Shown here one piece after another: positions 8,153 to 19,662 of a DNA stretch of 21,311 nucleotides. The notes beneath the pieces are model-generated. The model did no database searches and was not told the DNA's origin. It was given only the letters and a program-made list of their open reading frames with translations. The first letter of the stretch is position 1; every line of letters begins with the position of its first letter. The position numbers and the translations under genes were made by a program. The DNA is from JACRDV01 sp024860865 [NCBI: Methanobacteriota archaeon] (GTDB lineage: Archaea > JACRDV01): the NCBI GenBank assembly GCA_024860865.1, contig JACRDV010000069.1, positions 1 through 21,311 of the forward strand. Direction: 5' to 3'.

Positions 8153-9301
8153 TTAATATTTCAATTTAAAATTAGAGGGTTGAAGTTTCTCTGGAAGGAA
8201 TTTGGCTATTTTAAGCATTTTGTTAGTAAAACTCCTTTGGATTGGTCTTGCAGTGTTTTTCTCATGCATTTTAATTGTTGTTTTAGGTAGCTGGCTGGTG
8301 AAACTGCTTTCCCCATTTATATTTGACCTGAGTCTCAGCCATTCTCCAACCTTAGACCACACCTCTTTTTGAAACTTGGAGCTGACGAAAAGCCCTATGT
8401 GTTTTGTTGGGAAAATCAACGTCTTTTTGTCCTTGCTAGAGACAGCTTCCTCCAGGGGCTTACAAGCATCCGCAGGCACTATGTGGTCTAATTCCGCAAC
8501 GATATTTAGCACTGGCATATTTATCTTTCGCAAATCAATGCGCTTTCCATCTATCCTCATCTCATTTTTTATTAATAAGTTTTTTTGATAGCAATCCTTC
8601 AAGAATTGCCTAAAAGCCTCTCCAGCTTGGTCAGGGCTATCAAATATCCATTTTTCCATTCTAAGAAAGTTCTTAGTAAATTCTACATTATCAACATGTT
8701 CCAAGAAAGTAACGTACTTATCTATTATAAGTCGGAATGGATTCAACAACAGAAAGATGTTATTTAAGAAATCCCCAGGGACATTACCTAAGGTATCTAC
8801 AATTTTGTCCACATCAAAGTATTTCACCCATATGTGCAAAAGGCCTGCTTGTGTGCTAAAGTCAATAGGAGCCACTACAGCAATTAGATTCTTCACTTTG
8901 TCAGGATGTAGTGCAGCATACATAACTGAAAGAGTTCCACCTTGGCAAACTCCTAAAAGAGAAATCTTATTTATGCCAGACCTTTTTTTAATGATCTCTA
9001 CTGCTCTATCAATATAGCCATTGATATAATCATCAAGAGTTAGAAATTTATCTGCTCTGCTCGGATATCCCCAATCGATAAGATAAATATCCATACCCTG
9101 CTCTAATAGCCTCCGAATCATGCTCCTATCTGGTTGGAGGTCGAGCATATAAAATCGATTTACCAAGGCATATACTATTAATAGAGGTACTGGGTGGATT
9201 TTCTCTGCCATTGGATAATAATGGAGTAGCTTAAATTTGTCCTCCTCATAAACCACTTCAGAGGGCGTAGTGCCAACATCTATGTCAAAATTTTTAAACA
9301 T
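8153..9301 (-). CDS. phaC: Class III-type polyhydroxyalkanoate synthase catalytic subunit
   Basis: 382 aa from the ATG at 9301. It polymerises (R)-3-hydroxyacyl-CoA into PHA. The lipase-like box is GVCQGG with nucleophile Cys119, as in PHA synthases and unlike Ser hydrolases. Asp272 is in AELDHIVP and His301 in FPTKHIGLF. DIYLIDWGYPSRAD and the DSPDQAGEAFRQFLKDCYQ stretch are also typical of class III PhaC. After the domain ends there is a basic tail of about 55 residues that bacterial class III enzymes generally lack. A TTG seven codons upstream is possible, but the ATG has AAGGAAG before it and a TATA-like box at 9340-9347 would start transcription near 9317, inside the longer version. Confidence 0.93.
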   Translation of the reverse strand: MFKNFDIDVGTTPSEVVYEEDKFKLLHYYPMAEKIHPVPLLIVYALVNRFYMLDLQPDRSMIRRLLEQGMDIYLIDWGYPSRADKFLTLDDYINGYIDRAVEIIKKRSGINKISLLGVCQGGTLSVMYAALHPDKVKNLIAVVAPIDFSTQAGLLHIWVKYFDVDKIVDTLGNVPGDFLNNIFLLLNPFRLIIDKYVTFLEHVDNVEFTKNFLRMEKWIFDSPDQAGEAFRQFLKDCYQKNLLIKNEMRIDGKRIDLRKINMPVLNIVAELDHIVPADACKPLEEAVSSKDKKTLIFPTKHIGLFVSSKFQKEVWSKVGEWLRLRSNINGESSFTSQLPKTTIKMHEKNTARPIQRSFTNKMLKIAKFLPEKLQPSNFKLKY

Positions 9302-9337
9302 ATTAAACTTCCTTACACTCAATTTTTATTATTGAAT

Positions 9338-9493: not shown

Positions 9494-10072
9494 TCAAGAA
9501 AGGGCTTTAACTTGGCCAGATAGTTCTCTCACTTGTTTTTTTAGAAGATGTATCTCTCTATTAATTTCATCTATATCGCTTTTAGTTGGAAGGGACATTG
9601 TTTTTAGGTACCCTTGTGAAACATCCTCATAATATTTTCTAAAATCTAAAAAACTATTAATAAACGCCCCAAAATCTGAAGCAAATTCGTCTGATCTTAA
9701 AAATTTGTCAAAAGTCTCTTCATACGTGCTTATCCAAGCATTGTAAGATTCTTTATAACTTTCAATGGTTATTTCTCCCTTCATCATTTTTGATGTCACA
9801 TCGCGCATCTTCCCCATAGCTTCGGTCCAAGGCCTATAAAACTTAAAGTAGAAGTTCATCCAAGCCTTATAGAATTTTGTAAAAACCTCAAAGCCTTTAA
9901 AAAATTTTTCAGTAATTTCTTTCGCTGGTCCTAAGAGCGTCATTCCTAGAAACTTGCCAAAGGTTTCTTCATAGGTTTTCGTCCATAAATTGTAGAACTC
10001 TTTGTAGGCCTCAGGGCTTGCAGCCCCTCTTGTAATTTCTGCCATTTTTTTTAGTTGCTCTTCGGTCATCAT
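9494..10072 (-). CDS. PhaE-like PHA synthase subunit (downstream half of a repeat array)
   Basis: 192 aa. Class III synthases need a non-catalytic PhaE partner that stabilises PhaC. Evidence is the position upstream of phaC, a helical Trp/Tyr/Phe-rich body, and a C-terminal tail (MSLPTKSDIDEINREIHLLK, then KQVREL) resembling the PhaE C-terminus. Residues 12-45 hold the module TRGAASPEAYKEFYNLWTKTYEETF and residues 96-130 a diverged one (GEITIESYKESYNAWISTYEETF). It starts with tandem ATGs at 10072/10069, seven nucleotides after the upstream gene's stop, with no clear ribosome site, so reinitiation is likely. Its start falls in the middle of a repeat module. PhaE is the best guess for this pair; phasin is the alternative. 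Confidence 0.7.
   Translation of the reverse strand: MMTEEQLKKMAEITRGAASPEAYKEFYNLWTKTYEETFGKFLGMTLLGPAKEITEKFFKGFEVFTKFYKAWMNFYFKFYRPWTEAMGKMRDVTSKMMKGEITIESYKESYNAWISTYEETFDKFLRSDEFASDFGAFINSFLDFRKYYEDVSQGYLKTMSLPTKSDIDEINREIHLLKKQVRELSGQVKALS
9944..10041 (-). repeat. Direct DNA repeat, copy D (98 nt)
   Basis: It matches 10215-10312 with about two mismatches over 98 nt (offset 271). It encodes the end of one module, SPEAYKEFYNLWTKTYEETFGKFLG, in the downstream PhaE-like gene. Confidence 0.85.
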
Positions 10073-10079
10073 TCAGCCA

Positions 10080-10925
10080 TCATATCCATAGTTTATAAAG
10101 TTTAAAGTAGAAATCCATTCCCATTTTATAAAATTTCATAAGAGTGGTAGCATAGGTTTCTGAAATTTCCCAAAAGGGGTCAAACGCTCCTTTAACAGAT
10201 TCGAACATTGGTACTCCTAGAAACTTGCCAAAGGTTTCTTCATAGGTTTTCATCCATAAATTGTAGAACTCTTTGTAGGCCTCAGGGCTTGCAGTCCCTC
10301 TTGTAATTTCTGTTGCTTTATCTGACATATTTTTCATTGCATCGATCCATGGACTATAAAGTTTAAAGTAGGAATCCATCCACATCCTCATAATATTAAT
10401 CAAAGAATCAGAGTATATTCTTAACACTCCGGTCCAATGTCCAAATAATTCTCTCGTAGATTCAATAGCAGCTGGTCCCAGAAGATCATCAAAAATATCC
10501 TCATAAGTCTCTACCCACCTATCGTACAGCTCTTTATATTCCCTTGGATCAGTCTCTCCCTCCAGCATTTCTGTTGTTTTCTTCGATAAATCCTCCAGTG
10601 CGGCTATCCATAACTTATAACGCCCTACAGAGTCATCAGCACCTTTTAACAATTTCTCAAATGTTTCCTTAGTTGGCGCAAGGAGAGGCGTTCCTATAAA
10701 CTTGCCAATGGTTTCTTCATAGGTTTTCGTCCATAAATTGTAGAACTCTTTGTAGGCCTCAGGGCTTGCAGTCCCTCTTGTAATTTCTGTTGCTTTATCT
10801 GACATATTTTTCATCGCATCGATCCATGGACTATAAAGTTTAAAGTAGGAATCCAACCACATTTTGGTTATATTGCTATATCCGTCGGACCAAATTTTAA
10901 AAAAATTTCTTTCTCCTCCAATCAT
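10080..10925 (-). CDS. PhaE/phasin-like repeat protein (upstream half)
   Basis: 281 aa, soluble, helical, rich in Trp, Tyr and Lys. Three modules are visible near residues 34-76, 106-146 and 193-235. Each runs W-[IL]-x-A-[ML]-x-x-[ML]-S-x-K-x-T-E, then G-[TE]-[AT]-[SD]-P-x-x-Y-K-E-[FL]-Y-x-x-W-x-x-T-Y-E. The first and third are 159 residues apart and almost identical. The protein stops after YFKLYKLWI, exactly where a fourth module would continue; the next gene resumes that module. The ATG at 10925 is chosen because GGGGG sits six nucleotides before it; an ATG eight codons upstream at 10949 has no such site. It is probably a PHA granule or synthase partner, inferred from context and resemblance to PhaE. 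Confidence 0.65.
   Translation of the reverse strand: MIGGERNFFKIWSDGYSNITKMWLDSYFKLYSPWIDAMKNMSDKATEITRGTASPEAYKEFYNLWTKTYEETIGKFIGTPLLAPTKETFEKLLKGADDSVGRYKLWIAALEDLSKKTTEMLEGETDPREYKELYDRWVETYEDIFDDLLGPAAIESTRELFGHWTGVLRIYSDSLINIMRMWMDSYFKLYSPWIDAMKNMSDKATEITRGTASPEAYKEFYNLWMKTYEETFGKFLGVPMFESVKGAFDPFWEISETYATTLMKFYKMGMDFYFKLYKLWI
10215..10378 (-). repeat. Direct DNA repeat, copy C (164 nt)
   Basis: It matches 10692-10855 with about four mismatches over 164 nt at a fixed offset of 477 nt. It encodes the third module of the upstream PhaE-like protein. The low divergence implies recent duplication or gene conversion. Confidence 0.9.
10692..10855 (-). repeat. Direct DNA repeat, copy A (164 nt)
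   Basis: Partner of 10215-10378. It encodes the first module (DSYFKLYSPWIDAMKNMSDK onward) of the same protein. Confidence 0.9.
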
Positions 10926-10949
10926 TATATTCCCCCAAGTTAATTTCAT

Positions 10950-11071: not shown

Positions 11072-11077
11072 GTGTTA

Positions 11078-11923
11078 GTGGGTGAAAGATTAAAAGGTAA
11101 AACAGCTTTGGTTACAGGGGCTTCAAGAGGAATTGGAAAAGCGATTGCACTAGCTTTAGCAGAAGAGGGAGCTAGTGTGGCAATTAATTACCAACATAGA
11201 GAAGATGAAGCAAGAGAAGTTGCAAAATTAGCGGAGCAAATAGCAAAAACTGAGCAATTATACACTGCTGCTCTATTAATAGATCACCTAGAAACTAGAG
11301 AGCATGCACAGGAAGTAGCAAAAGTAGTGGAAGAACTAGGCGGGTCAGCAATGATTTGCCAAGCAAACGTCAGCAAGATTGAAGAAGTATATCGAATGAG
11401 AGATGAAGTGCTAAAAGAGTTTGGCAAAATAGATATTTTAGTCAATAATGCCGGAATTACTAGAGACAAAACGCTAGTTAAAATGACGCCAGAAATGTGG
11501 AGAGAAGTCCTATCTGTAAACTTAGATGGAGTTTTTTATTGCACTAAAGCAGTTGTGGAAGGAATGATAGAAAGAAGATGGGGAAGAATAATCAATACAT
11601 CATCGGTGGTAGGTGAAATGGGGAATATTGGGCAAACAAATTATGCCGCGTCTAAAGCAGGATTGATTGGCTTTACAAAGGCTTTGGCAAGAGAATTAGC
11701 CGGAAAAGGAATAACTGTAAATGCAATTGCTCCAGGTTTTACAGAAACAGAAATGGTAGCTTCGGTGCCAAAGAATGTACTGGAAAAAATTGTGGCTCAA
11801 ATACCGCTAGGTAGGCTTGGAAGACCAAGAGAAATAGCAAGAGCTGTAATTTTTTTGGCTTCAGAAGATGGAGATTATATAACCGGCCAAGTTTTAGATG
11901 TAAATGGCGGACTATATATGTAA
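11078..11923 (+). CDS. phaB: SDR reductase, probable acetoacetyl-CoA reductase (PhaB/FabG type)
   Basis: 281 aa. It probably reduces acetoacetyl-CoA to (R)-3-hydroxybutyryl-CoA. Classic SDR features: TGASRGIG at 13-20, NNAG at 123-126, and catalytic Ser176, Tyr189 and Lys193 (YAASK). The end of beta-2 reads AINYQHR without an acidic residue, which suggests NADPH. It is about 35 residues longer than usual: an insertion of about 32 residues follows REVAK near residue 50 and ends at a second QEVAK copy. GGAGG at 11064-11068 is nine nucleotides before the GTG at 11078 but only three before the GTG at 11072, so 11078 is preferred. A FabG role in lipid synthesis is less likely in an archaeon. Confidence 0.85.
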   Translation: MGERLKGKTALVTGASRGIGKAIALALAEEGASVAINYQHREDEAREVAKLAEQIAKTEQLYTAALLIDHLETREHAQEVAKVVEELGGSAMICQANVSKIEEVYRMRDEVLKEFGKIDILVNNAGITRDKTLVKMTPEMWREVLSVNLDGVFYCTKAVVEGMIERRWGRIINTSSVVGEMGNIGQTNYAASKAGLIGFTKALARELAGKGITVNAIAPGFTETEMVASVPKNVLEKIVAQIPLGRLGRPREIARAVIFLASEDGDYITGQVLDVNGGLYM

Positions 11924-12125: not shown

Positions 12126-13304
12126 TCACCTTTCAACTATCGTGGCTATCCCTTGCCCACCTCCTATGCAAAGAGAAGCAAGACCGTATGTTCCTTCTCT
12201 TCTCTGCAACTCATATAATAGAGTAATTAGAATTCTCGCCCCACTAGCCCCTATAGGATGACCAAGAGCTATAGCACCGCCGTTTACATTTACTTTTTCC
12301 ATATCCCAACCCATCATCTTACTTACTGCAACGCTTTGAGCTGCGAAGGCTTCATTAACTTCTATTAAGTCTAAGTCTTCCAATTTTAATCCTGCCCTGT
12401 TCAAAGCTTTTTTACTAGCATTCAATGGACCTATTCCCATTATTTCAGGCGGGACTCCAGCAGATGCATAGCTCTTAATAACGGCCATCGGTTCAATCCC
12501 CTTTTCCTCCGCTTTTTTCTCTGACATCAAGACTACAACAGCTGCCCCATCATTTATTCCACAAGAATTCCCCGCCGTCACACTTCCATCTTTTTTAAAA
12601 GCTGGTTTTAACTTACAAAGAGCTTCGAGAGTAGTTCCAAAGCGCGGAAATTCATCAGTATCAAAAACAATAGGCTCTCCTTTTTGTTGTGGAACCGTTA
12701 CTGGAACTATCTCTTCCTTAAACTTCCCTCCTTTTACTGCTGCCTCTGCCCTTTTTTGGCTTTTTAATGCAAATTCATCTTGCTCTTCTCTAGTAATTTT
12801 AAACCTTTCAGCGATATTTTCAGCAGTAATCCCCATATGACAATTATTAAAAACATCCATAAGCCCATCGTGAACCATTAAATCTATGAGCTCATCGTTA
12901 CCCATTTTAATTCCCCATCTAGCTCTTTTAATAGCATAAGGCGCGGTTGACATTGATTCGACTCCGCCTGCCAAAATTATATCTGCATCTTTAAGCATTA
13001 TCGCTTGGGCACCTAAAATTATAGATTTTAATCCTGATCCGCAAACCTTATTAACGCAATAAGACGGGACTTCAACTGGAATTCCTGCTCTAATAGCTGC
13101 TTCTCTAGCAATGTTCTGGCCATTGCCTGCTGAAAGAACATTTCCTAAAATTACCTCATCAACTTCCTTTGGGTCAACATTTGCCCTTTTTAAAGCTTCT
13201 TTTAAAACTATCTCTCCAAGCTGAGGTGGAGTAAAATCTTTTAAACTTCCTCCAAATTTTCCTACTGGAGTTCGAACTCCTGTAACAATAACTGGCTTTT
13301 CCAT
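12126..13304 (-). CDS. phaA: Acetyl-CoA acetyltransferase (beta-ketothiolase)
   Basis: 392 aa, typical thiolase length. It condenses two acetyl-CoA to acetoacetyl-CoA, the entry to PHB. Acyl-enzyme Cys88 is in NKVCGSGLK, His349 in [12 protein letters not shown] and the second Cys (379) in [11 protein letters not shown]. This is the bacterial AtoB/PhaA-type arrangement, distinct from the archaeal mevalonate-pathway thiolase, so acquisition together with the PHA genes is likely. It lies 65 nt downstream of the large repeat-protein gene on the same strand, converging with phaB1 across about 200 nt. Degradative use in beta-oxidation is the alternative, but no beta-oxidation genes are present here. 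Confidence 0.93.
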
Positions 13305-13369: not shown

Positions 13370-14416
13370 TTAAGTTGGCTTGTAGCGATAAACAAAATCG
13401 ACCCACATCTTTGAGAATCTTAAAGAAGTATCCATATAAACTTTTAGCATGCTTGTCATTGGAGCAAACATTTCTTTCATTGGCTTGAGCATTGGAATCT
13501 CAAGAATGTCAGTAACAGCTTTTTCGTACAACTTTACCCATAGGGTGAGAAATTCCTTTTGAACTTCTGGAGCCGTATCTACTTTGACCATATCACTCGC
13601 TTTCTCTGACATTTTTTCTAAAGCAGGCATCCAGGACTTAAAGAGCCTTAAATACACATTAAAGCTTTCTAAAAAGCTTTCGAGCATTAGCTTTGTTGGT
13701 AACTCTCTTTCTGCTCCAAAAATCTTACTGAAAGTCTCTTTATAAGTGTCCATCCATAAGTTGTAAAATTCTTCATATGCTGTTGGAGAAGCCTTGCCTT
13801 CAGCAATTTCTGCTGTTTTTTCAGCAATTTTTCCAGTTACATCTATCCATGGTTTAAAAAGTTTTTCAAAAGATTCTTTCCAAACATTTGAAGCTTTTGC
13901 GAGAAAACCTATAAACATTTCCGGCACGCCAAAGTAATATCCAAAGGCCCCCTTCAACGGTTCGGATACCGGCGGCTTAAAGGAATAATCTAAAATTTTT
14001 TTATAATTTTCCAACCATAGAGCATAAAATTCTCTAAGCTTTTCAGGAGTTGTTGGCCCTGTCAATGCTTCAGAAGTTTTCTTTGAAATGTCCTCTAATG
14101 TTGAAATCCAAGATTTATAGGCTGCAATATTATCTTCACTAGTTTTTAAAAACTTTTCAAAAATTTCTTTATCTAGTGAAGGCGTTACTAACTTGCTGAA
14201 GGTATCTTTATACGTGGTAATCCACAACTCATAAAACTCTTTGTAGGCCTCTGGGCTTGCAGCCCCTCTTGTAATTTCTGTTGCTTTATCTGACATATTT
14301 TGCATTGCATCGCTCCATTGTTTAAAAAGCGCCCCATAAGATTCTTCCCAATTTTTTAAAAAGTCATCATAAAAATTTATCCATTTCTCAGTGCTGGTTT
14401 TCTTTTCTTCTTCCAT
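13370..14416 (-). CDS. Large phasin/PhaE-like protein with four repeat modules
   Basis: 348 aa from the ATG at 14416, which follows GAGGGTGA at a good distance; a longer frame to 14488 starts with unrelated sequence. Four modules lie near residues 34-77, 103-141, 190-232 and 262-299, for example SDKATEITRGAASPEAYKEF, EKTAEIAEGKASPTAYEEFY and SEKASDMVKVDTAPEVQKEF. The first is nearly identical, also in DNA, to the modules in the PhaE-like genes. It is soluble, acidic and helical with regularly spaced Trp and Tyr. Directly upstream of phaA, it is probably a granule-coating or synthase-binding protein. It lacks the PhaE-like LPTKSDIDE tail, which favours a phasin role over a synthase-subunit role. 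Confidence 0.65.
   Translation of the reverse strand: MEEEKKTSTEKWINFYDDFLKNWEESYGALFKQWSDAMQNMSDKATEITRGAASPEAYKEFYELWITTYKDTFSKLVTPSLDKEIFEKFLKTSEDNIAAYKSWISTLEDISKKTSEALTGPTTPEKLREFYALWLENYKKILDYSFKPPVSEPLKGAFGYYFGVPEMFIGFLAKASNVWKESFEKLFKPWIDVTGKIAEKTAEIAEGKASPTAYEEFYNLWMDTYKETFSKIFGAERELPTKLMLESFLESFNVYLRLFKSWMPALEKMSEKASDMVKVDTAPEVQKEFLTLWVKLYEKAVTDILEIPMLKPMKEMFAPMTSMLKVYMDTSLRFSKMWVDFVYRYKPT
14235..14318 (-). repeat. Direct DNA repeat, copy F (84 nt)
   Basis: It matches part of the 10215-10378 and 10692-10855 repeats with about four to five mismatches over 84 nt, nearly 4 kb away in a different gene. It encodes the first module of the large repeat protein. Confidence 0.85.
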
Positions 14417-14826
14417 AGTTTCACCCTCTTTGTGTTTTATTGAAAAACTTTCGTTTCTTGAATGTTGCCGGTAACAATACAAAAACAAAAAACCTAAGCT
14501 AAGTTTTTGCTCTAGCTGAGAAAGCTAGAGAGGTTTTATTTTCATTTGATTTCAAATAAATGGCCTTTTATGTTGGTTGGATTTTAATATATAAACCTTA
14601 TTAATATGAAGGCTTTGGGACATAATTAGGCATTCATCCTCGATAGCGGATATCCCATCTATATGTTTCAAATAGCAAAGCCGCTTAAGATTATAATCGC
14701 ACGCCCTCGTAAATGCCTCCTGCTTTCTTCGCAAATTAATTCTCTTTCGCAGCGGAATAGAAAAATTCCTTTTGTAATATCAAAGTGCTATGATAGGAAA
14801 ACTTCTAACGAAGCAATCGATTTTTA
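14417..14826. other. Gene-free stretch with a perfect hairpin
   Basis: No convincing gene. It contains the leader of the large repeat-protein gene and a perfect 8-bp inverted repeat at 14510-14530 (CTCTAGCT, 5-nt loop, AGCTAGAG). The hairpin is followed on the minus strand by two T-runs within 35 nt and on the plus strand by GGTTTTATTTTC, so it could be a terminator for either strand or an operator. Short frames here show no protein-like composition. Confidence 0.4.
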
Positions 14827-15112
14827 GAGGAAGTTAGAAAAGAGACAAAAGAAAAGATCTATTTAATTCTGATAACTGGTCTGTTCATAGATCAAAAGCT
14901 TTTAAAGAATTTGTTGAAAAGGATGGGAAAATCGAGCTTGTTTATCTTTCAACAAATACTTGGTCGAATAGAATTGAGTAATTTTTTCTCGACACTTAAA
15001 GGAGATGTAATTAACAATTAACAACAACAGCAACAAAGCAAAGAAGAGCTTAAAAAAAGCAATAGTTAGATATGTCGAGTGTTCTATCAAAAAAATAATT
15101 TTAAATTTATAA
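14827..15112 (+). pseudogene. IS630-type transposase remnant (C-terminal DDE part)
   Basis: Joining frames recovers a protein-like string: EEVRKETKEKIYLIL (from 14827), DNWSVHRSKAFKEFVEKDGK and then IELVYLS (from 14871), FSTLKGDVINN, and KKAIVRYVECSIKKIILNL ending at 15112. This follows the IS630/Tc1-like pattern ..LILDN.S.H.SK..KEF......IELVYL.........E..FS.LK..V. The Asp of the DN motif and the start of the following H-x-S-K helix are present, but the PPYSPxLNPIE motif has decayed to STNTWSNRIE. There are at least two frameshifts and several stops, and no N-terminal half or terminal repeats. It is a dead fragment inside the PHA locus. Confidence 0.55.
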
Positions 15113-15235: not shown

Positions 15236-15466
15236 ATGACTGACAAACAAACTCCTAAACAACTACCGGATAACTTCTATGCTTATATGATTTACTTCCC
15301 AACAATGCAACTTTTCTACTGGAATTTGCTTCAGTACTTTTTGTTCGTTACTACGCTGACACATATGGCAAATAAGCTCCTATTGCCCTATAGACAACCC
15401 ACCACTGACAAGATTACTAACAAAACCTCCAAAGTAGACCTTAGACCAGATCCAAGTTTTGCGTAA
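15236..15466 (+). CDS. Small aromatic-rich protein sharing a segment with the second reductase
   Basis: 76 aa. Residues 14-50 are rich in Tyr, Phe, Trp, Leu and Met and contain YFPTMQLFYWNLLQYFLF, long enough for one membrane-inserted or interface helix. The remainder is polar. The block M-[ST]-[DE]-K-Q ... YFP[ST]MxLFY also begins the 307-aa reductase at 17466, so this is probably real and functional. An AT-rich TATA-like element is centred about 28 nt before the ATG and no ribosome site is seen, which suggests a leaderless transcript, as for the reductase. I infer a granule- or membrane-surface role. It is not a family I can name. Confidence 0.55.
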   Translation: MTDKQTPKQLPDNFYAYMIYFPTMQLFYWNLLQYFLFVTTLTHMANKLLLPYRQPTTDKITNKTSKVDLRPDPSFA

Positions 15467-15490
15467 GAAACTAAAAACAGGAATTTATAG

Positions 15491-16267
15491 CTAAGCGGAT
15501 AATGGCGCTTTAGTATAACAATATATTCCGTATCCTATTTCATTTGAGTTAATAAATAGCCTTGATATTTCCTTTAACTTTAACCTTTGAGAAGGATCAA
15601 TCTTTAGATATCTTAGAAGAATATTAAACGATTCGAAGCCTTCTGTGATAAATATATCAAAAGAATGATCACTTTCCTCAATGAAAATTCCTGCACTTAG
15701 TTCTTTAAACCCAAAATTTTCGAAAAGGCTTCTCCATTCATTGAAAGTGAATGTTTCAAATTTTATTCCAGTTAATCTAGAAATCTTATTTGCCAGCTTT
15801 TCTGATGGTTTTTCAAGCCACGTATATTCTATCACACCGAGACGACCGCGATATTTTAAAATGCGCTTGATTTCAGATAGAGCTCTCTTTAAATCCAGAT
15901 ATATAAGAACAGATTGGGCTATAATAACATCAAAACACTCATTTTTTAAGGGAAGGTCATTCGAATCACAGCGGATGAAATCACAGATTTTCGCTCTATC
16001 CTTAAGTTTTTCCTTTGATCTAGCTATCATTAATGGATTTATATCTGCTCCAATTGCTCTACATCCATACTCTTCAGCAATATTAAGTACAGTTCTTCCG
16101 ATGCCTGCACCTATCTCTAGCACACTACTATCGCTAGAAATTCCGCAATTTTTAACGAGTTTCTTTGTAGCCCAATATCCACCTGGATGAAGCCAAGGTA
16201 AACCTATGTACGCAAGAAGCTCAAAATAAGATAATTTTGTTAATTCTTCAGGCTTAAAAAGCTTCAT
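15491..16267 (-). CDS. SAM-dependent methyltransferase (UbiE-like class I)
   Basis: 258 aa. SAM-binding motif I is VLEIGAGIGRTVLNIAEEYG (from about residue 49), followed by the acidic GADINPLMIARSKEK, then RCDSNDLPLKNECFDVIIAQ as motifs II-III with the post-I to IV spacing of small-molecule methyltransferases. The N-terminal LPWLHPGGYWATKKLV resembles the entry helix of ubiquinone/menaquinone-type enzymes. The C-terminal 90 residues are variable and probably define the substrate, which is unknown. It lies 70 nt downstream of the small phasin gene on the same strand, so cotranscription is possible. No Shine-Dalgarno is visible before the ATG. Its link to PHA is positional only. Confidence 0.75.
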   Translation of the reverse strand: MKLFKPEELTKLSYFELLAYIGLPWLHPGGYWATKKLVKNCGISSDSSVLEIGAGIGRTVLNIAEEYGCRAIGADINPLMIARSKEKLKDRAKICDFIRCDSNDLPLKNECFDVIIAQSVLIYLDLKRALSEIKRILKYRGRLGVIEYTWLEKPSEKLANKISRLTGIKFETFTFNEWRSLFENFGFKELSAGIFIEESDHSFDIFITEGFESFNILLRYLKIDPSQRLKLKEISRLFINSNEIGYGIYCYTKAPLSA

Positions 16268-16337
16268 ATTTTAACAAATATGCTAATAATTTCATAAAAA
16301 TTTAATAAAAAGATTTTGTTATTCTTTTGGTCAGTTT

Positions 16338-16736
16338 TTACTTTTTGAAGAAGGTATCAAAAGTGTTTGACCAAAGAGAGACCCAGTTTTTATACATGTC
16401 AGTGGGTGCCTTGTGCCATTCACCTGTGAACACATTTGCCAGTTTAAAAGCCTCTTTTGTTGCGTCTATCCCGGAAACCGAGAGCCTAAGACATGTATCG
16501 AGACTTTGGATTGATAACTTTGTCATATCTGCAAAGGGAGCGAAAAAAACTCGCGATGGTCCTGTGACTAAAGCTTCGAACATTGATTTTTGTAGTGATA
16601 TGTTATAATCAACCAAACGTTTTAAATTCTCTACATACTCTTTTTGTACAGCTATGGTTACTTCGAACAGCTTGGCAGAACTTTCTCTTAAAGCATCAAA
16701 GATATCCTTTCCTGCCCTTTCAGGTTTTTCTTCCAT
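16338..16736 (-). CDS. Small phasin-like granule protein
   Basis: 132 aa from the ATG at 16736, which follows AAGGTGA; a GTG at 16745 lies within that ribosome site and is less likely. The whole protein looks amphipathic-helical: SSAKLFEVTIAVQKEYVENL and LVDYNISLQKSMFEAL resemble the helical repeats of phasins, which coat PHA granules. The C-terminus has WHKAPTDMYKNWVSLWSNTF, echoing the P-x-x-x-Y-x-x-W-x-x-x-W spacing of the repeat modules. Start (MEEKPE) and ribosome site resemble those of the large repeat protein (MEEEKK), suggesting parallel expression. Phasin is the best guess given the location. Confidence 0.65.
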   Translation of the reverse strand: MEEKPERAGKDIFDALRESSAKLFEVTIAVQKEYVENLKRLVDYNISLQKSMFEALVTGPSRVFFAPFADMTKLSIQSLDTCLRLSVSGIDATKEAFKLANVFTGEWHKAPTDMYKNWVSLWSNTFDTFFKK

Positions 16737-16761
16737 AAATTTCACCTTCTTTTAATCTTTA

Positions 16762-16775
16762 GCTATTTAAATATA
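16762..16775 (-). promoter_or_regulatory. TATA-like promoter of the small phasin gene
   Basis: Minus-strand TTATATTTAAATA about 30 nt before the ATG at 16736. It predicts a very short leader that just holds the AAGGTGA ribosome site. Confidence 0.4.
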
Positions 16776-17433
16776 AAACCTTCGAATTCTTTCTCTTAAA
16801 ATATCATGCTTCTATTGTTGCTAACGTCAGATAGCGGATAGATACAGAATTCTTCAAAATTAACATATAATTATATATTTCTAAAATATAAAAATTCTGT
16901 AAATTTTGTTTGCTAATATTCTTTTAAAATTGAAACAACATTTTGAATAAAACAGAGTGCTTTTAAACTACTAGCTCCAAAACCTAAAGAAGTCTACCTG
17001 AAAAACTGTTATCAAAATTTTTTGGAGCATTCCTGAGCTTGCTTTGCATTCTTTTCACTTTGAATTTTTTCTTCGCTCGAATTGCAGTATGGTTCTCTGT
17101 TTACTGGCAAATAGATTATTTTAAAAGTTCTTGCAATAGCTAGATCGCAACATTGTGGTTTTTCTATTTTTTAATTTTAAAGTAATTACTGGAGCTTTAC
17201 TTAAGAGCATTGAACTAGGTTCTAGCTACTTGTGACTTGCTGCAAGCGAACTATTTCTCAAAGATTTCACTTAAGATTTTGTCATTGCAGAATAATAGTA
17301 ATTTTTGGAATTGTTATTTACCAGCAAAGTTCTTATTGACAAGAAGGATGCTTATAGTCTGACGAAAGGAGAGAAATTTCTAGAACAAAATTCCAATTAC
17401 TGATAAAGTCGTCGGACGTTAGTCTTAACCAAG
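16776..17433. other. Long gene-free stretch with possible decayed coding
   Basis: About 660 nt without a convincing gene. One short plus frame at 17329-17403 reads VLIDKKDAYSLTKGEKFLEQ, reminiscent of the C-terminal end of archaeal winged-helix regulators (Y-x-[LT]-T-x-K-G-x-x-F-L), but upstream frames are full of stops. It may be the remnant of a regulator gene. Otherwise nothing is recognised. Confidence 0.3.
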
Positions 17434-17441
17434 TTTAAGTA
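17434..17441 (+). promoter_or_regulatory. TATA-like promoter of the extended reductase
   Basis: TTTAAGTA is centred about 28 nt before the ATG at 17466 and no ribosome site precedes the ATG, the pattern of a leaderless archaeal transcript. The small aromatic protein gene at 15236 has the same layout. Confidence 0.4.
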
Positions 17442-17465
17442 TTTTATTTTAATAAGTATACCTAC

Positions 17466-18389
17466 ATGTCTGAAAAACAAATGCTAAGCTTCACGCACTA
17501 TTTTCCCAGCATGTATCTTTTTTACTTGTACTCATTCTACTATTATCAGTTTATCAACATTCTAAAACTTACCACTCAAGCACTTATAAAGCAGCATACG
17601 CAACGTGCAAGCCCGGAAGTAAAAAAATTAAGGATACTGGAAGTAAAAAAATTAAGGCTAGAAAACAAGGTTGCAATTATTACAGGTTCAGCAAAAGGAA
17701 TTGGAAGAGAGGCTGCACTGTTATTTGCTGAAGAAGGAGCTAAAGTTGTTGTAATCGACGTTGACGAGGGTGGTAGTGAAACAGCTGAAGAGATCAAAAA
17801 TATGGGCCATGAATCTCTTTTTGTAAAAACAGATGTATGTAACAAAGAACAGGTACAAGATATGGTAAAAAAGGTAGTGGAAAGATTCGGCAAAATAGAT
17901 GTACTGATTAATAATGCTGGGATTATCCGAGATTCTACTCTATTGAAAATGACTGAAGAGCAATGGGATAAAGTTATTGATACAAACCTTAAAGGAGTTT
18001 TTAATTGCACTCAAGCTGTAGCTGAAGTTATGGTTAAACAAGGTTATGGAAAGATAATAAACACTTCTTCTATAGTAGCCCTTTACGGTAATTTTGGGCA
18101 AGCAAATTATGCAGCTTCAAAAGCAGGATTAATTGGATTTACGAAGACGCTAGCAAAAGAACTCGGGAGAAAAGGGATTCGGGTTAATGCAGTTGCACCT
18201 GGATTTGTTCTTACCGATATGGTTCGCAGTGTTCCGGAGAAAGTTCTTGAAATGGTCAAAGAAAAAACACCAATAGGTAGATTGGGTCAACCAAAAGATA
18301 TTGCCAATGTATATCTATTTTTAGCTTCAGATGAATCAGATTATATTAATGGGGCTGTACTTTCTGTTGATGGTGGATTAACCCTGTAA
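17466..18389 (+). CDS. SDR reductase (PhaB/FabG type) with aromatic N-terminal extension
   Basis: 307 aa. Residues 66-307 are a complete SDR: TGSAKGIG at 73-80, INNAG at 148-152, and catalytic Ser202, Tyr215 and Lys219. The end of beta-2 is VVVIDVD (Asp98), which usually selects NAD(H), unlike the other reductase here. Residues 1-65 are extra: HYFPSMYLFYLYSFYYYQF at 11-29 is a strongly aromatic segment shared with the 76-aa protein at 15236, followed by a basic linker with an 8-residue tandem duplication (EVKKLRIL/EVKKLRLE). No internal ATG precedes the SDR domain, so the extension is probably translated. It probably interconverts acetoacetyl-CoA and 3-hydroxybutyryl-CoA, perhaps tethered to the granule or membrane. 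Substrate and tethering are inferred. Confidence 0.8.
   Translation: MSEKQMLSFTHYFPSMYLFYLYSFYYYQFINILKLTTQALIKQHTQRASPEVKKLRILEVKKLRLENKVAIITGSAKGIGREAALLFAEEGAKVVVIDVDEGGSETAEEIKNMGHESLFVKTDVCNKEQVQDMVKKVVERFGKIDVLINNAGIIRDSTLLKMTEEQWDKVIDTNLKGVFNCTQAVAEVMVKQGYGKIINTSSIVALYGNFGQANYAASKAGLIGFTKTLAKELGRKGIRVNAVAPGFVLTDMVRSVPEKVLEMVKEKTPIGRLGQPKDIANVYLFLASDESDYINGAVLSVDGGLTL
17615..17657 (+). repeat. 24-nt tandem duplication in the reductase linker
   Basis: GGAAGTAAAAAAATTAAGG occurs at 17615-17633 and again, exactly, at 17639-17657. It encodes E-V-K-K-L-R twice at the junction between the aromatic extension and the SDR domain. Confidence 0.85.
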
Positions 18390-18989: not shown

Positions 18990-19400
18990 TCAATACCGTT
19001 GAATATCTATTTTTATGACTTCTTTTATTAGCTCGAAGTGTTTTATATTTCTTGTAACAACAGTGCTGTAGCCGTTGTTTAAAGCTACTGCAGCTGTTAT
19101 CGCGTCTGCGCCGACTTCCCTTCCACTTCTCAACAGAGTGCCGCCTATTTCTGAAGCCTTTAGAGCATCTCTATATTTAAAATCTAAAATTTCCACCCTG
19201 TTGAAAGCTTTATCTAATTTTTCTTTAATCTTCTTGCGAGTTTTATCATCCTTAACGGCAAATGCCCCGATATAAGCTTCAAAAACATTGAGCACGGTTG
19301 TAGCTGCACCCCCCTCCTCATCTATTTTTTGAGTTATATCGCGAATTGCATCTGGATTTTTAATCAAGTCCACAAAATAAGTTGTGTCAAGGCAAATCAT
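18990..19400 (-). CDS. vapC: VapC-type PIN-domain toxin ribonuclease
   Basis: 136 aa. It has the PIN-domain acidic set: Asp5 in MICLDTTYFVD, Glu41 in NVFEAYIGA, Asp99 in EVGADAITAAVAL, and the terminal TRNIKHFELI block (116-125) typical of VapC. Such toxins cleave tRNA, rRNA or mRNA with Mg2+. Its ATG overlaps the antitoxin stop (ATGA), the classic vapBC layout. Length and motifs look intact, so it is probably active. The RNA target cannot be read from sequence. Confidence 0.9.
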   Translation of the reverse strand: MICLDTTYFVDLIKNPDAIRDITQKIDEEGGAATTVLNVFEAYIGAFAVKDDKTRKKIKEKLDKAFNRVEILDFKYRDALKASEIGGTLLRSGREVGADAITAAVALNNGYSTVVTRNIKHFELIKEVIKIDIQRY

Positions 19401-19627
19401 AGTGCAAAGCCTTGTTTAAATTCTTCATCTAGCTTAGCTCTTATCTTCTTCACTGAGTTTTCATATTCAGATACTTCTCTAAGCTCAGAATGCAAATCCA
19501 GAATCTCGCTAAGCGTGGCTTTTTTCTTGGTTAACCTTTTTATCACGTCAGAGAAACTCTCGTCCTTAAGCTTCATGTTGCGTAAAAGCTTATAGGCATC
19601 ATCAGAAAGCGAAATAGTTTTTGTCAT
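19397..19627 (-). CDS. vapB: VapB-type antitoxin
   Basis: 76 aa from the ATG at 19627. The N-terminal KTISLSDDAYKLLRNMKLKD followed by ESFSDVIKRL is the archaeal VapB form: a DNA-binding strand-helix-helix that dimerises, then a C-terminal tail that wraps the toxin. A GTG six codons upstream is in frame but lies within the operator palindrome and after the TATA box, so the ATG with a leaderless start is preferred. It overlaps vapC by four nucleotides. Confidence 0.85.
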   Translation of the reverse strand: MTKTISLSDDAYKLLRNMKLKDESFSDVIKRLTKKKATLSEILDLHSELREVSEYENSVKKIRAKLDEEFKQGFAL

Positions 19628-19634
19628 GTATGTG

Positions 19635-19662
19635 TATGTGCGCACATATATATTTAAAAGTT
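19635..19662 (-). promoter_or_regulatory. vapBC promoter with 14-nt palindromic operator
   Basis: TATGTGCGCACATA (19635-19648) is a perfect palindrome, flanked upstream by the TATA-like TTTAAATATA (about 19653-19662). Transcription would start near the ATG at 19627. The palindrome lies between TATA box and start, where a VapB dimer would block RNA polymerase; autoregulation is the norm for this family. Confidence 0.6.

What the first reader, a model, noticed from the sequence alone, without database searches (positions are those of the whole stretch)
15236..17555. Shared aromatic tag: a 76-aa protein and the N-terminus of a reductase
MTDKQ...YFPTMQLFYWNLLQYF (15236) and MSEKQ...HYFPSMYLFYLYSFYYY (17466) share the start and the YFP[ST]MxLFY core followed by Tyr/Phe/Leu-rich helix. 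PhaB/FabG enzymes normally have no such extension. A modular tag that anchors enzymes and a free small protein to the PHA granule surface, membrane or synthase would be a new granule-targeting element.
Basis: partly seen in the sequence, partly recalled or inferred. Interest (0 to 1): 0.75.

Follow-up and report, generated by a model that had tools for sequence, protein, structure and literature searches.

The report
Aromatic helix on archaeal storage-pathway reductase
In one poorly known archaeon, an enzyme that probably serves the bioplastic (PHA) storage pathway carries an extra, very aromatic front segment that its nearest relatives lack, and a small neighbouring protein has a similar segment; it probably sticks to a greasy surface, but whether that is the storage granule or the membrane is unknown.

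Summary
Both reading frames are where stated, and their aromatic segments resemble each other more than chance gives, but modestly: score 60 is reached by 1 of 20,000 full and 91 of 20,000 segment-wise shuffles and by 7 of 7,626 aromatic-rich pairs. The host is an archaeon with a Methanoperedens-like class III PHA locus. In 16 of 17 related loci examined the reductase's orthologue follows phaC, and it starts at the codon aligned with window residue 63: ATG in 14 of 16, ATA in 2. In the window this codon is TTA, and no ATG/GTG/TTG lies between residue 21 and the core. So the extension is very probably translated and new in this lineage. It is modelled as a long helix, uniformly hydrophobic rather than phasin-like. 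It works most like the N-terminal anchor of lipid-droplet SDRs such as HSD17B13. I found no convincing match in 393 other archaeal genomes or in 14 Methanoperedens-type genomes, so a general granule-targeting element is not supported. An origin from a PhaE unit failed its test. Granule versus membrane stays open.

The parts
15236..15466 (+). P0001, 76-aa ORF; aromatic core YFPTMQLFY at 15293-15319
   Evidence: codon score better than 98.7% of random open frames (39 of 3,000 reach it); helix 12-53 modelled from the single sequence; no Pfam or NCBIfam match
17466..17651 (+). 62-residue N-terminal extension of FabG1; aromatic core YFPSMYLFY at 17499-17525
   Evidence: codon score not distinct from random open frames (627 of 3,000 reach it); helix 14-46 modelled with moderate confidence
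17652..17654 (+). TTA codon that aligns with the start codon of the orthologues (ATG in 14 of 16, ATA in 2)
17652..18389 (+). FabG1 core, SDR
   Evidence: PF13561 and FabG models TIGR01830, NF004198 above cut-off; 58-71% identity to 14 orthologues
17615..17657 (+). Two direct copies of a 19-base word, 24 bases apart, at the junction of extension and core
   Evidence: By eye; not listed by TRF at score 30
8153..9322 (-). Class III PhaC
   Evidence: TIGR01836, 481.4 bits against cut-off 365.3
9494..10072 (-). PhaE-like protein, 2 repeat units
   Evidence: PF09712 above cut-off; TIGR01834 below cut-off
10080..10949 (-). PhaE-like protein, 3 repeat units
   Evidence: PF09712 above cut-off; TIGR01834 below cut-off
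11072..11923 (+). FabG2, second SDR, no extension
   Evidence: TIGR01830 and TIGR01829 above cut-off
12126..13304 (-). PhaA-type thiolase
   Evidence: TIGR01930 above cut-off
13370..14488 (-). PhaE-like protein, 4 repeat units
   Evidence: PF09712 just above cut-off (26.2 of 25.7 bits); TIGR01834 below cut-off

Best explanation
The SDR reductase FabG1 is no longer behind phaC, has lost the start codon that its orthologues use, and is now translated from an upstream ATG. This adds 62 residues whose core is a long, very aromatic helix. The helix most likely lies in the interface of a hydrophobic surface as a monotopic anchor and holds the reductase there, either on the cytoplasmic membrane or on the PHA granule, where its product would be made next to the synthase. 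The separate 76-residue protein is a free helix of the same kind, perhaps a paralogue, that would go to the same surface. Shown: no extension in orthologues, start codon lost, segment aromatic and hydrophobic, helix modelled. Inferred: translation from 17466, surface binding, common descent of the two segments, and any role in PHA.
For: 16 of 16 orthologues lack the extension, and the aligned start codon is TTA here. The in-frame canonical starts are at residues 1, 6, 16 and 21 only. The chance of an open 62-codon frame at local composition is 0.005. FabG1 core intact and, with FabG2, the only match at E <= 1e-15 in the 92% complete genome. Interface energy of the best 19 residues -9.8 (P0001) and -11.5 kcal/mol (extension), while a translocon-type scale is unfavourable, +5.6 and +6.3 (scales recalled). 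Helix models. Working analogue: HSD17B13, N-terminal hydrophobic helix in one leaflet (PMC10449848, passages).
Against: Only one genome has it. Codon usage of the extension is not gene-like (627 of 3,000 random open frames score as well). The extension has no homologue row in its model and moderate confidence (pLDDT about 73 at residues 21-40). The two segments are only weakly alike and not at DNA level. Flanking stretches reach a hydrophobic moment of 0.39, so an amphipathic part is not excluded. FabG1 misses the cut-off of the acetoacetyl-CoA reductase model.
Confidence: 0.45

Rival explanations
1. The extension is translated, but P0001 is unrelated or is not a gene. The two segments look alike because both are short, aromatic-rich and hydrophobic (convergence).
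For: BLASTP 6-residue match only. No DNA likeness. An unrelated N-terminus (L037) also reaches score 60 against the extension, and 7 of 7,626 aromatic-rich pairs do. The pair was picked by eye.
Against: 1 of 20,000 full shuffles, 91 of 20,000 segment shuffles. Same start MxxKQ, same order, same contig 2 kb apart. P0001 has fairly gene-like codons (39 of 3,000).
Confidence: 0.35
2. The extension is not made. FabG1 starts at a non-standard codon near the core (ATA 17634-17636, CTG 17637-17639 or TTA 17652-17654) and the upstream frame is open by chance.
For: 2 of 16 orthologues have ATA at the start position, and their script listing shows no ATG/GTG/TTG between stop and core. Codons of the extension are not gene-like (627 of 3,000).
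Against: The open frame has a chance of 0.005. 14 of 16 orthologues use ATG. The aromatic density is rare (2 of 204) and an ATG stands at the head of the frame.
Confidence: 0.15
3. The extension is a piece of a PhaE-like helical unit that docks FabG1 to PhaC/PhaE.
For: By eye, FINILK...RASPEVKK lines up with WIDAMK...TASPEAYKE of the window's PhaE-like proteins; weak matches to PhaE-like ORFs in the listing.
Against: A profile of 119 units gives 0.6 bits, reached by 845 of 5,000 full and 531 of 5,000 segment shuffles; P0001 -0.2 bits, 1,242 and 916 of 5,000. No Pfam match of the extension.
Confidence: 0.04
4. Assembly or base-calling fault of the draft genome joins foreign DNA to FabG1.
For: 160 contigs. 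A-runs and a 24-base-spaced direct repeat at the junction. FabG1 is out of its usual place.
Against: In the sequence no ATG lies in any frame in the 40 bases before the core, so a small indel would not give a usual start. GC is even across the junction.
Confidence: 0.06

Closest known systems
Lipid-droplet SDRs HSD17B13 and HSD17B11 (N-terminal anchor, residues 1-28)
   Same: SDR core with an added N-terminal hydrophobic helix that would lie in one leaflet of a surface; linked to a storage body in the known case (PMC10449848, passages)
   Different: Animal enzymes with another core substrate; HSD17B13 also uses a C-terminal helix-turn-helix; no sequence kinship of the anchors was tested; the tag here is longer, more aromatic and of unknown location
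FabG1 orthologues of Candidatus Methanoperedens PHA loci
   Same: Same SDR core, 58-71% identity in 14 aligned, same class III PHA locus
   Different: No extension in 16 of 16; they lie behind phaC, here FabG1 is about 8 kb away on the other strand
Phasins and PhaE
   Same: Helical, surface-seeking, at home in PHA loci
   Different: Phasin helices are amphipathic (moment 0.34-0.40 in PhaP1, PMC5658603 passage); the tag core is uniformly hydrophobic (0.01-0.23); no Pfam, NCBIfam or PhaE-unit match

Membership tests
FabG-type classical SDR | Match to SDR/FabG models above cut-off | tested here: met
   PF13561, PF00106; TIGR01830 315.2 of 297.75 bits, NF004198 315.7 of 296
FabG-type classical SDR | Cofactor motif and catalytic Ser, Tyr, Lys | tested here: met
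   T73 G74 G78 I79 G80, S201/S202, Y215, K219 invariant in 15 sequences; role of these residues recalled
Acetoacetyl-CoA reductase PhaB | TIGR01829 above its cut-off | tested here: not met
   FabG1 271.7 of 302.1 bits; FabG2 304.4, met
Acetoacetyl-CoA reductase PhaB | Reduces acetoacetyl-CoA | not testable with these tools
   Needs an enzyme assay
Phasin / PhaE | Match of the tag to phasin, PhaE or PhaE-unit profile | tested here: not met
Monotopic N-terminal anchored SDR (HSD17B13-like in working) | N-terminal hydrophobic helix before the SDR core | tested here: met
   modelled, not measured
Monotopic N-terminal anchored SDR (HSD17B13-like in working) | Location on membrane or storage body | not testable with these tools
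   Needs microscopy or fractionation
General granule-targeting tag | Recurs in proteins of other PHA loci | tested here: not met

The most novel reading that the evidence does not exclude
A lineage-specific aromatic helix has been used twice in one archaeal PHA locus, once as a free small granule or membrane protein and once fused to a reductase, so that monomer supply is fixed at the polymer surface: a granule-targeting tag unrelated to phasins and PhaE.
Probability: 0.15. Interest if true: 0.65.

Novelty: new variant of a known kind. Interest (0 to 1): 0.36.

Why it matters
If true, it is a natural case of a storage-pathway enzyme tethered to a hydrophobic surface by an added N-terminal helix, as in the lipid-droplet SDRs of animals, and a possible short tag for putting enzymes on PHA granules. 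It also catches an N-terminal fusion with the old start codon lost. At present it rests on one draft genome.

Tried and rejected
PhaE-unit origin of the tag: I built a profile of 119 units from 43 ORFs; extension and P0001 score at shuffle level. Rejected.

Tag elsewhere: own genome; 121 archaeal genomes including own, with each segment (26 and 32 genomes with a match at E <= 1, best other 0.0018 and 0.0023, read as noise); 17 genomes including own with the two-row profile (best other 0.0027 with stops inside and 0.0055 in a 46-aa open frame); 394 archaeal genomes including own (37 others at E <= 0.05, where about 20 are expected; best 7.6e-5 with four stops inside, next 0.0013 in a 40-aa open frame); viral contigs (none); PDB (two licT entries, E 0.31 and 0.45); six-frame pattern over 163 loci including the window (outside the window region, short or out-of-place matches only). 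The weak hits were judged from the tables; I did not study their surroundings.

DNA-level duplication of the two regions: not beyond chance. Remnants of PHA genes upstream of FabG1: tblastn of ORFs of 100 aa or more from the window, 17 related loci and 20 own contigs found nothing in 16750-17465 at E <= 0.05 but FabG1's own frame; some frames of L182 failed. The sigma-70 scan is uninformative for an archaeon. The upstream A+T profile of 126 genes shows only a faint rise near -28, so a leaderless start stays a guess.

Papers: six searches. Passages of two papers were seen; all others only as listings. No listing named an N-terminally anchored PHA reductase, which does not show that none is in print.

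Full report
WHAT IS THERE. The window is contig C16 of a draft archaeal genome (1.54 Mb, 160 contigs, 92% complete). No held genome is nearer than the domain: all 120 others are 'same domain', and the phylum search held only this genome. The middle and right of the window is a PHA locus: class III PhaC, three PhaE-like repeat proteins, a PhaA-type thiolase and two FabG-type reductases. FabG2 is at 11072, FabG1 at 17466. Between them lie the 76-aa ORF P0001 (15236), a methyltransferase and a 135-aa protein.

RELATIVES. PhaE-like ORFs stand before PhaC and FabG1 behind it; in G359 a thiolase follows (named by its likeness to the window's). I examined 17 loci (L162 and L082-L097); 16 gave a FabG1 orthologue, L092 did not. 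In the window these genes lie on both strands, and a broken DDE_3 transposase piece lies at about 14856-15092. So the locus was rearranged.

THE EXTENSION. In 16 of 16 orthologues FabG1 starts at the codon that aligns with window residue 63: ATG in 14, ATA in 2. In the window it is TTA at 17652-17654. In the 15 orthologues complete in their locus an in-frame stop lies 1 to 31 codons upstream, so none of these can hold 62 more residues. In the window the in-frame canonical starts lie 68, 63, 53 and 48 codons before the VAIITG motif, that is at residues 1, 6, 16 and 21. Unless a non-standard codon is used, at least 42 residues of extension are made. An open frame of 62 codons has a chance of 0.005 at local composition, but its codon usage is not gene-like (627 of 3,000 random open frames score as well; for P0001 39 of 3,000). 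The core is intact, and FabG1 and FabG2 are the only matches at E <= 1e-15 in the genome. By NCBIfam FabG1 passes FabG cut-offs and misses the acetoacetyl-CoA reductase one, which FabG2 passes. Its part in PHA making therefore rests on gene context.

LIKENESS OF THE TWO SEGMENTS. Score 60 over 41 ungapped residues. The controls are 1 of 20,000 full and 91 of 20,000 segment shuffles, 10 of 20,706 own N-terminus pairs, 0 and 1 of 5,119 N-termini, and 7 of 7,626 aromatic-rich pairs. BLASTP sees almost nothing, and the DNA is not alike beyond chance. As the pair was picked by eye, I read this as probable but unproven relatedness.

PHYSICS. Both segments are modelled as one long helix: 12-53 in P0001, pLDDT 90 and 96 for residues 21-30 and 31-40 from a single sequence, and 14-46 in FabG1, pLDDT about 73 for 21-40. 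The hydrophobic moment is 0.01-0.23 in the aromatic core and up to 0.39 just behind it. Phasin helices are amphipathic, 0.34-0.40 in PhaP1 (PMC5658603, passages). The closer analogue in working is the N-terminal hydrophobic helix of HSD17B13, proposed to lie in one leaflet, which brings an SDR to lipid droplets (PMC10449848, passages).

WHERE ELSE. Nowhere convincingly; the searches and their weak hits are listed in Tried and rejected. This speaks against a general granule tag and leaves a recent invention of this lineage.

A LEAD THAT FAILED. The tail of the extension resembles a PhaE repeat by eye. A profile of 119 PhaE units scored it 0.6 bits, reached by 845 of 5,000 shuffles, and P0001 -0.2 bits, reached by 1,242 of 5,000. 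I dropped it.

VERDICT. The extension is most likely real, new in this lineage, and a monotopic surface anchor. Granule targeting is one of two main options; a shared modular tag is possible but weakly supported.

Noticed in passing
L096:11059 and L097:11059: FabG1 orthologues of two Candidatus Methanoperedens nitroreducens records have ATA at the start position, with no ATG/GTG/TTG between the upstream stop and the core: possible non-standard start.
   Followed up: no
9494-10949 and 13370-14488; relatives L082-L097, L162: PhaE-like proteins are arrays of a repeat unit (model of 49 positions): 2, 3 and 4 units in the window, mostly 4 or 1 in relatives; 119 units in 43 ORFs.
   Followed up: partly
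14856-15092: Broken transposase piece, DDE_3 (PF13358) 29.2 of 28.6 bits, spread over three frames with stops, just upstream of P0001.
   Followed up: partly
16338-16745 (-): 135-aa protein without Pfam match whose end weakly resembles the second half of the PhaE unit (9.3 bits; 7.3e-5 for a single-protein search): maybe a small phasin.
   Followed up: partly
8153-8311 (-): PhaC has a tail of about 52 residues that the G359 PhaC lacks.
   Followed up: no
11072-11923 (+): FabG2-like proteins of relatives are about 30 residues longer behind the cofactor motif than FabG1 (273 against 239-241); window FabG2 matches SDR models in two stretches.
   Followed up: no
18990-19645 (-): VapB-type antitoxin (PF02697) and PIN-domain protein (PF01850) side by side: a toxin-antitoxin pair.
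   Followed up: no
whole genome G000: No MCR_alpha (PF02249) match at E <= 0.001 in the 92% complete genome, while the control rang in two methanogens: a Methanoperedens-like PHA locus apparently without methyl-coenzyme M reductase.
   Followed up: partly
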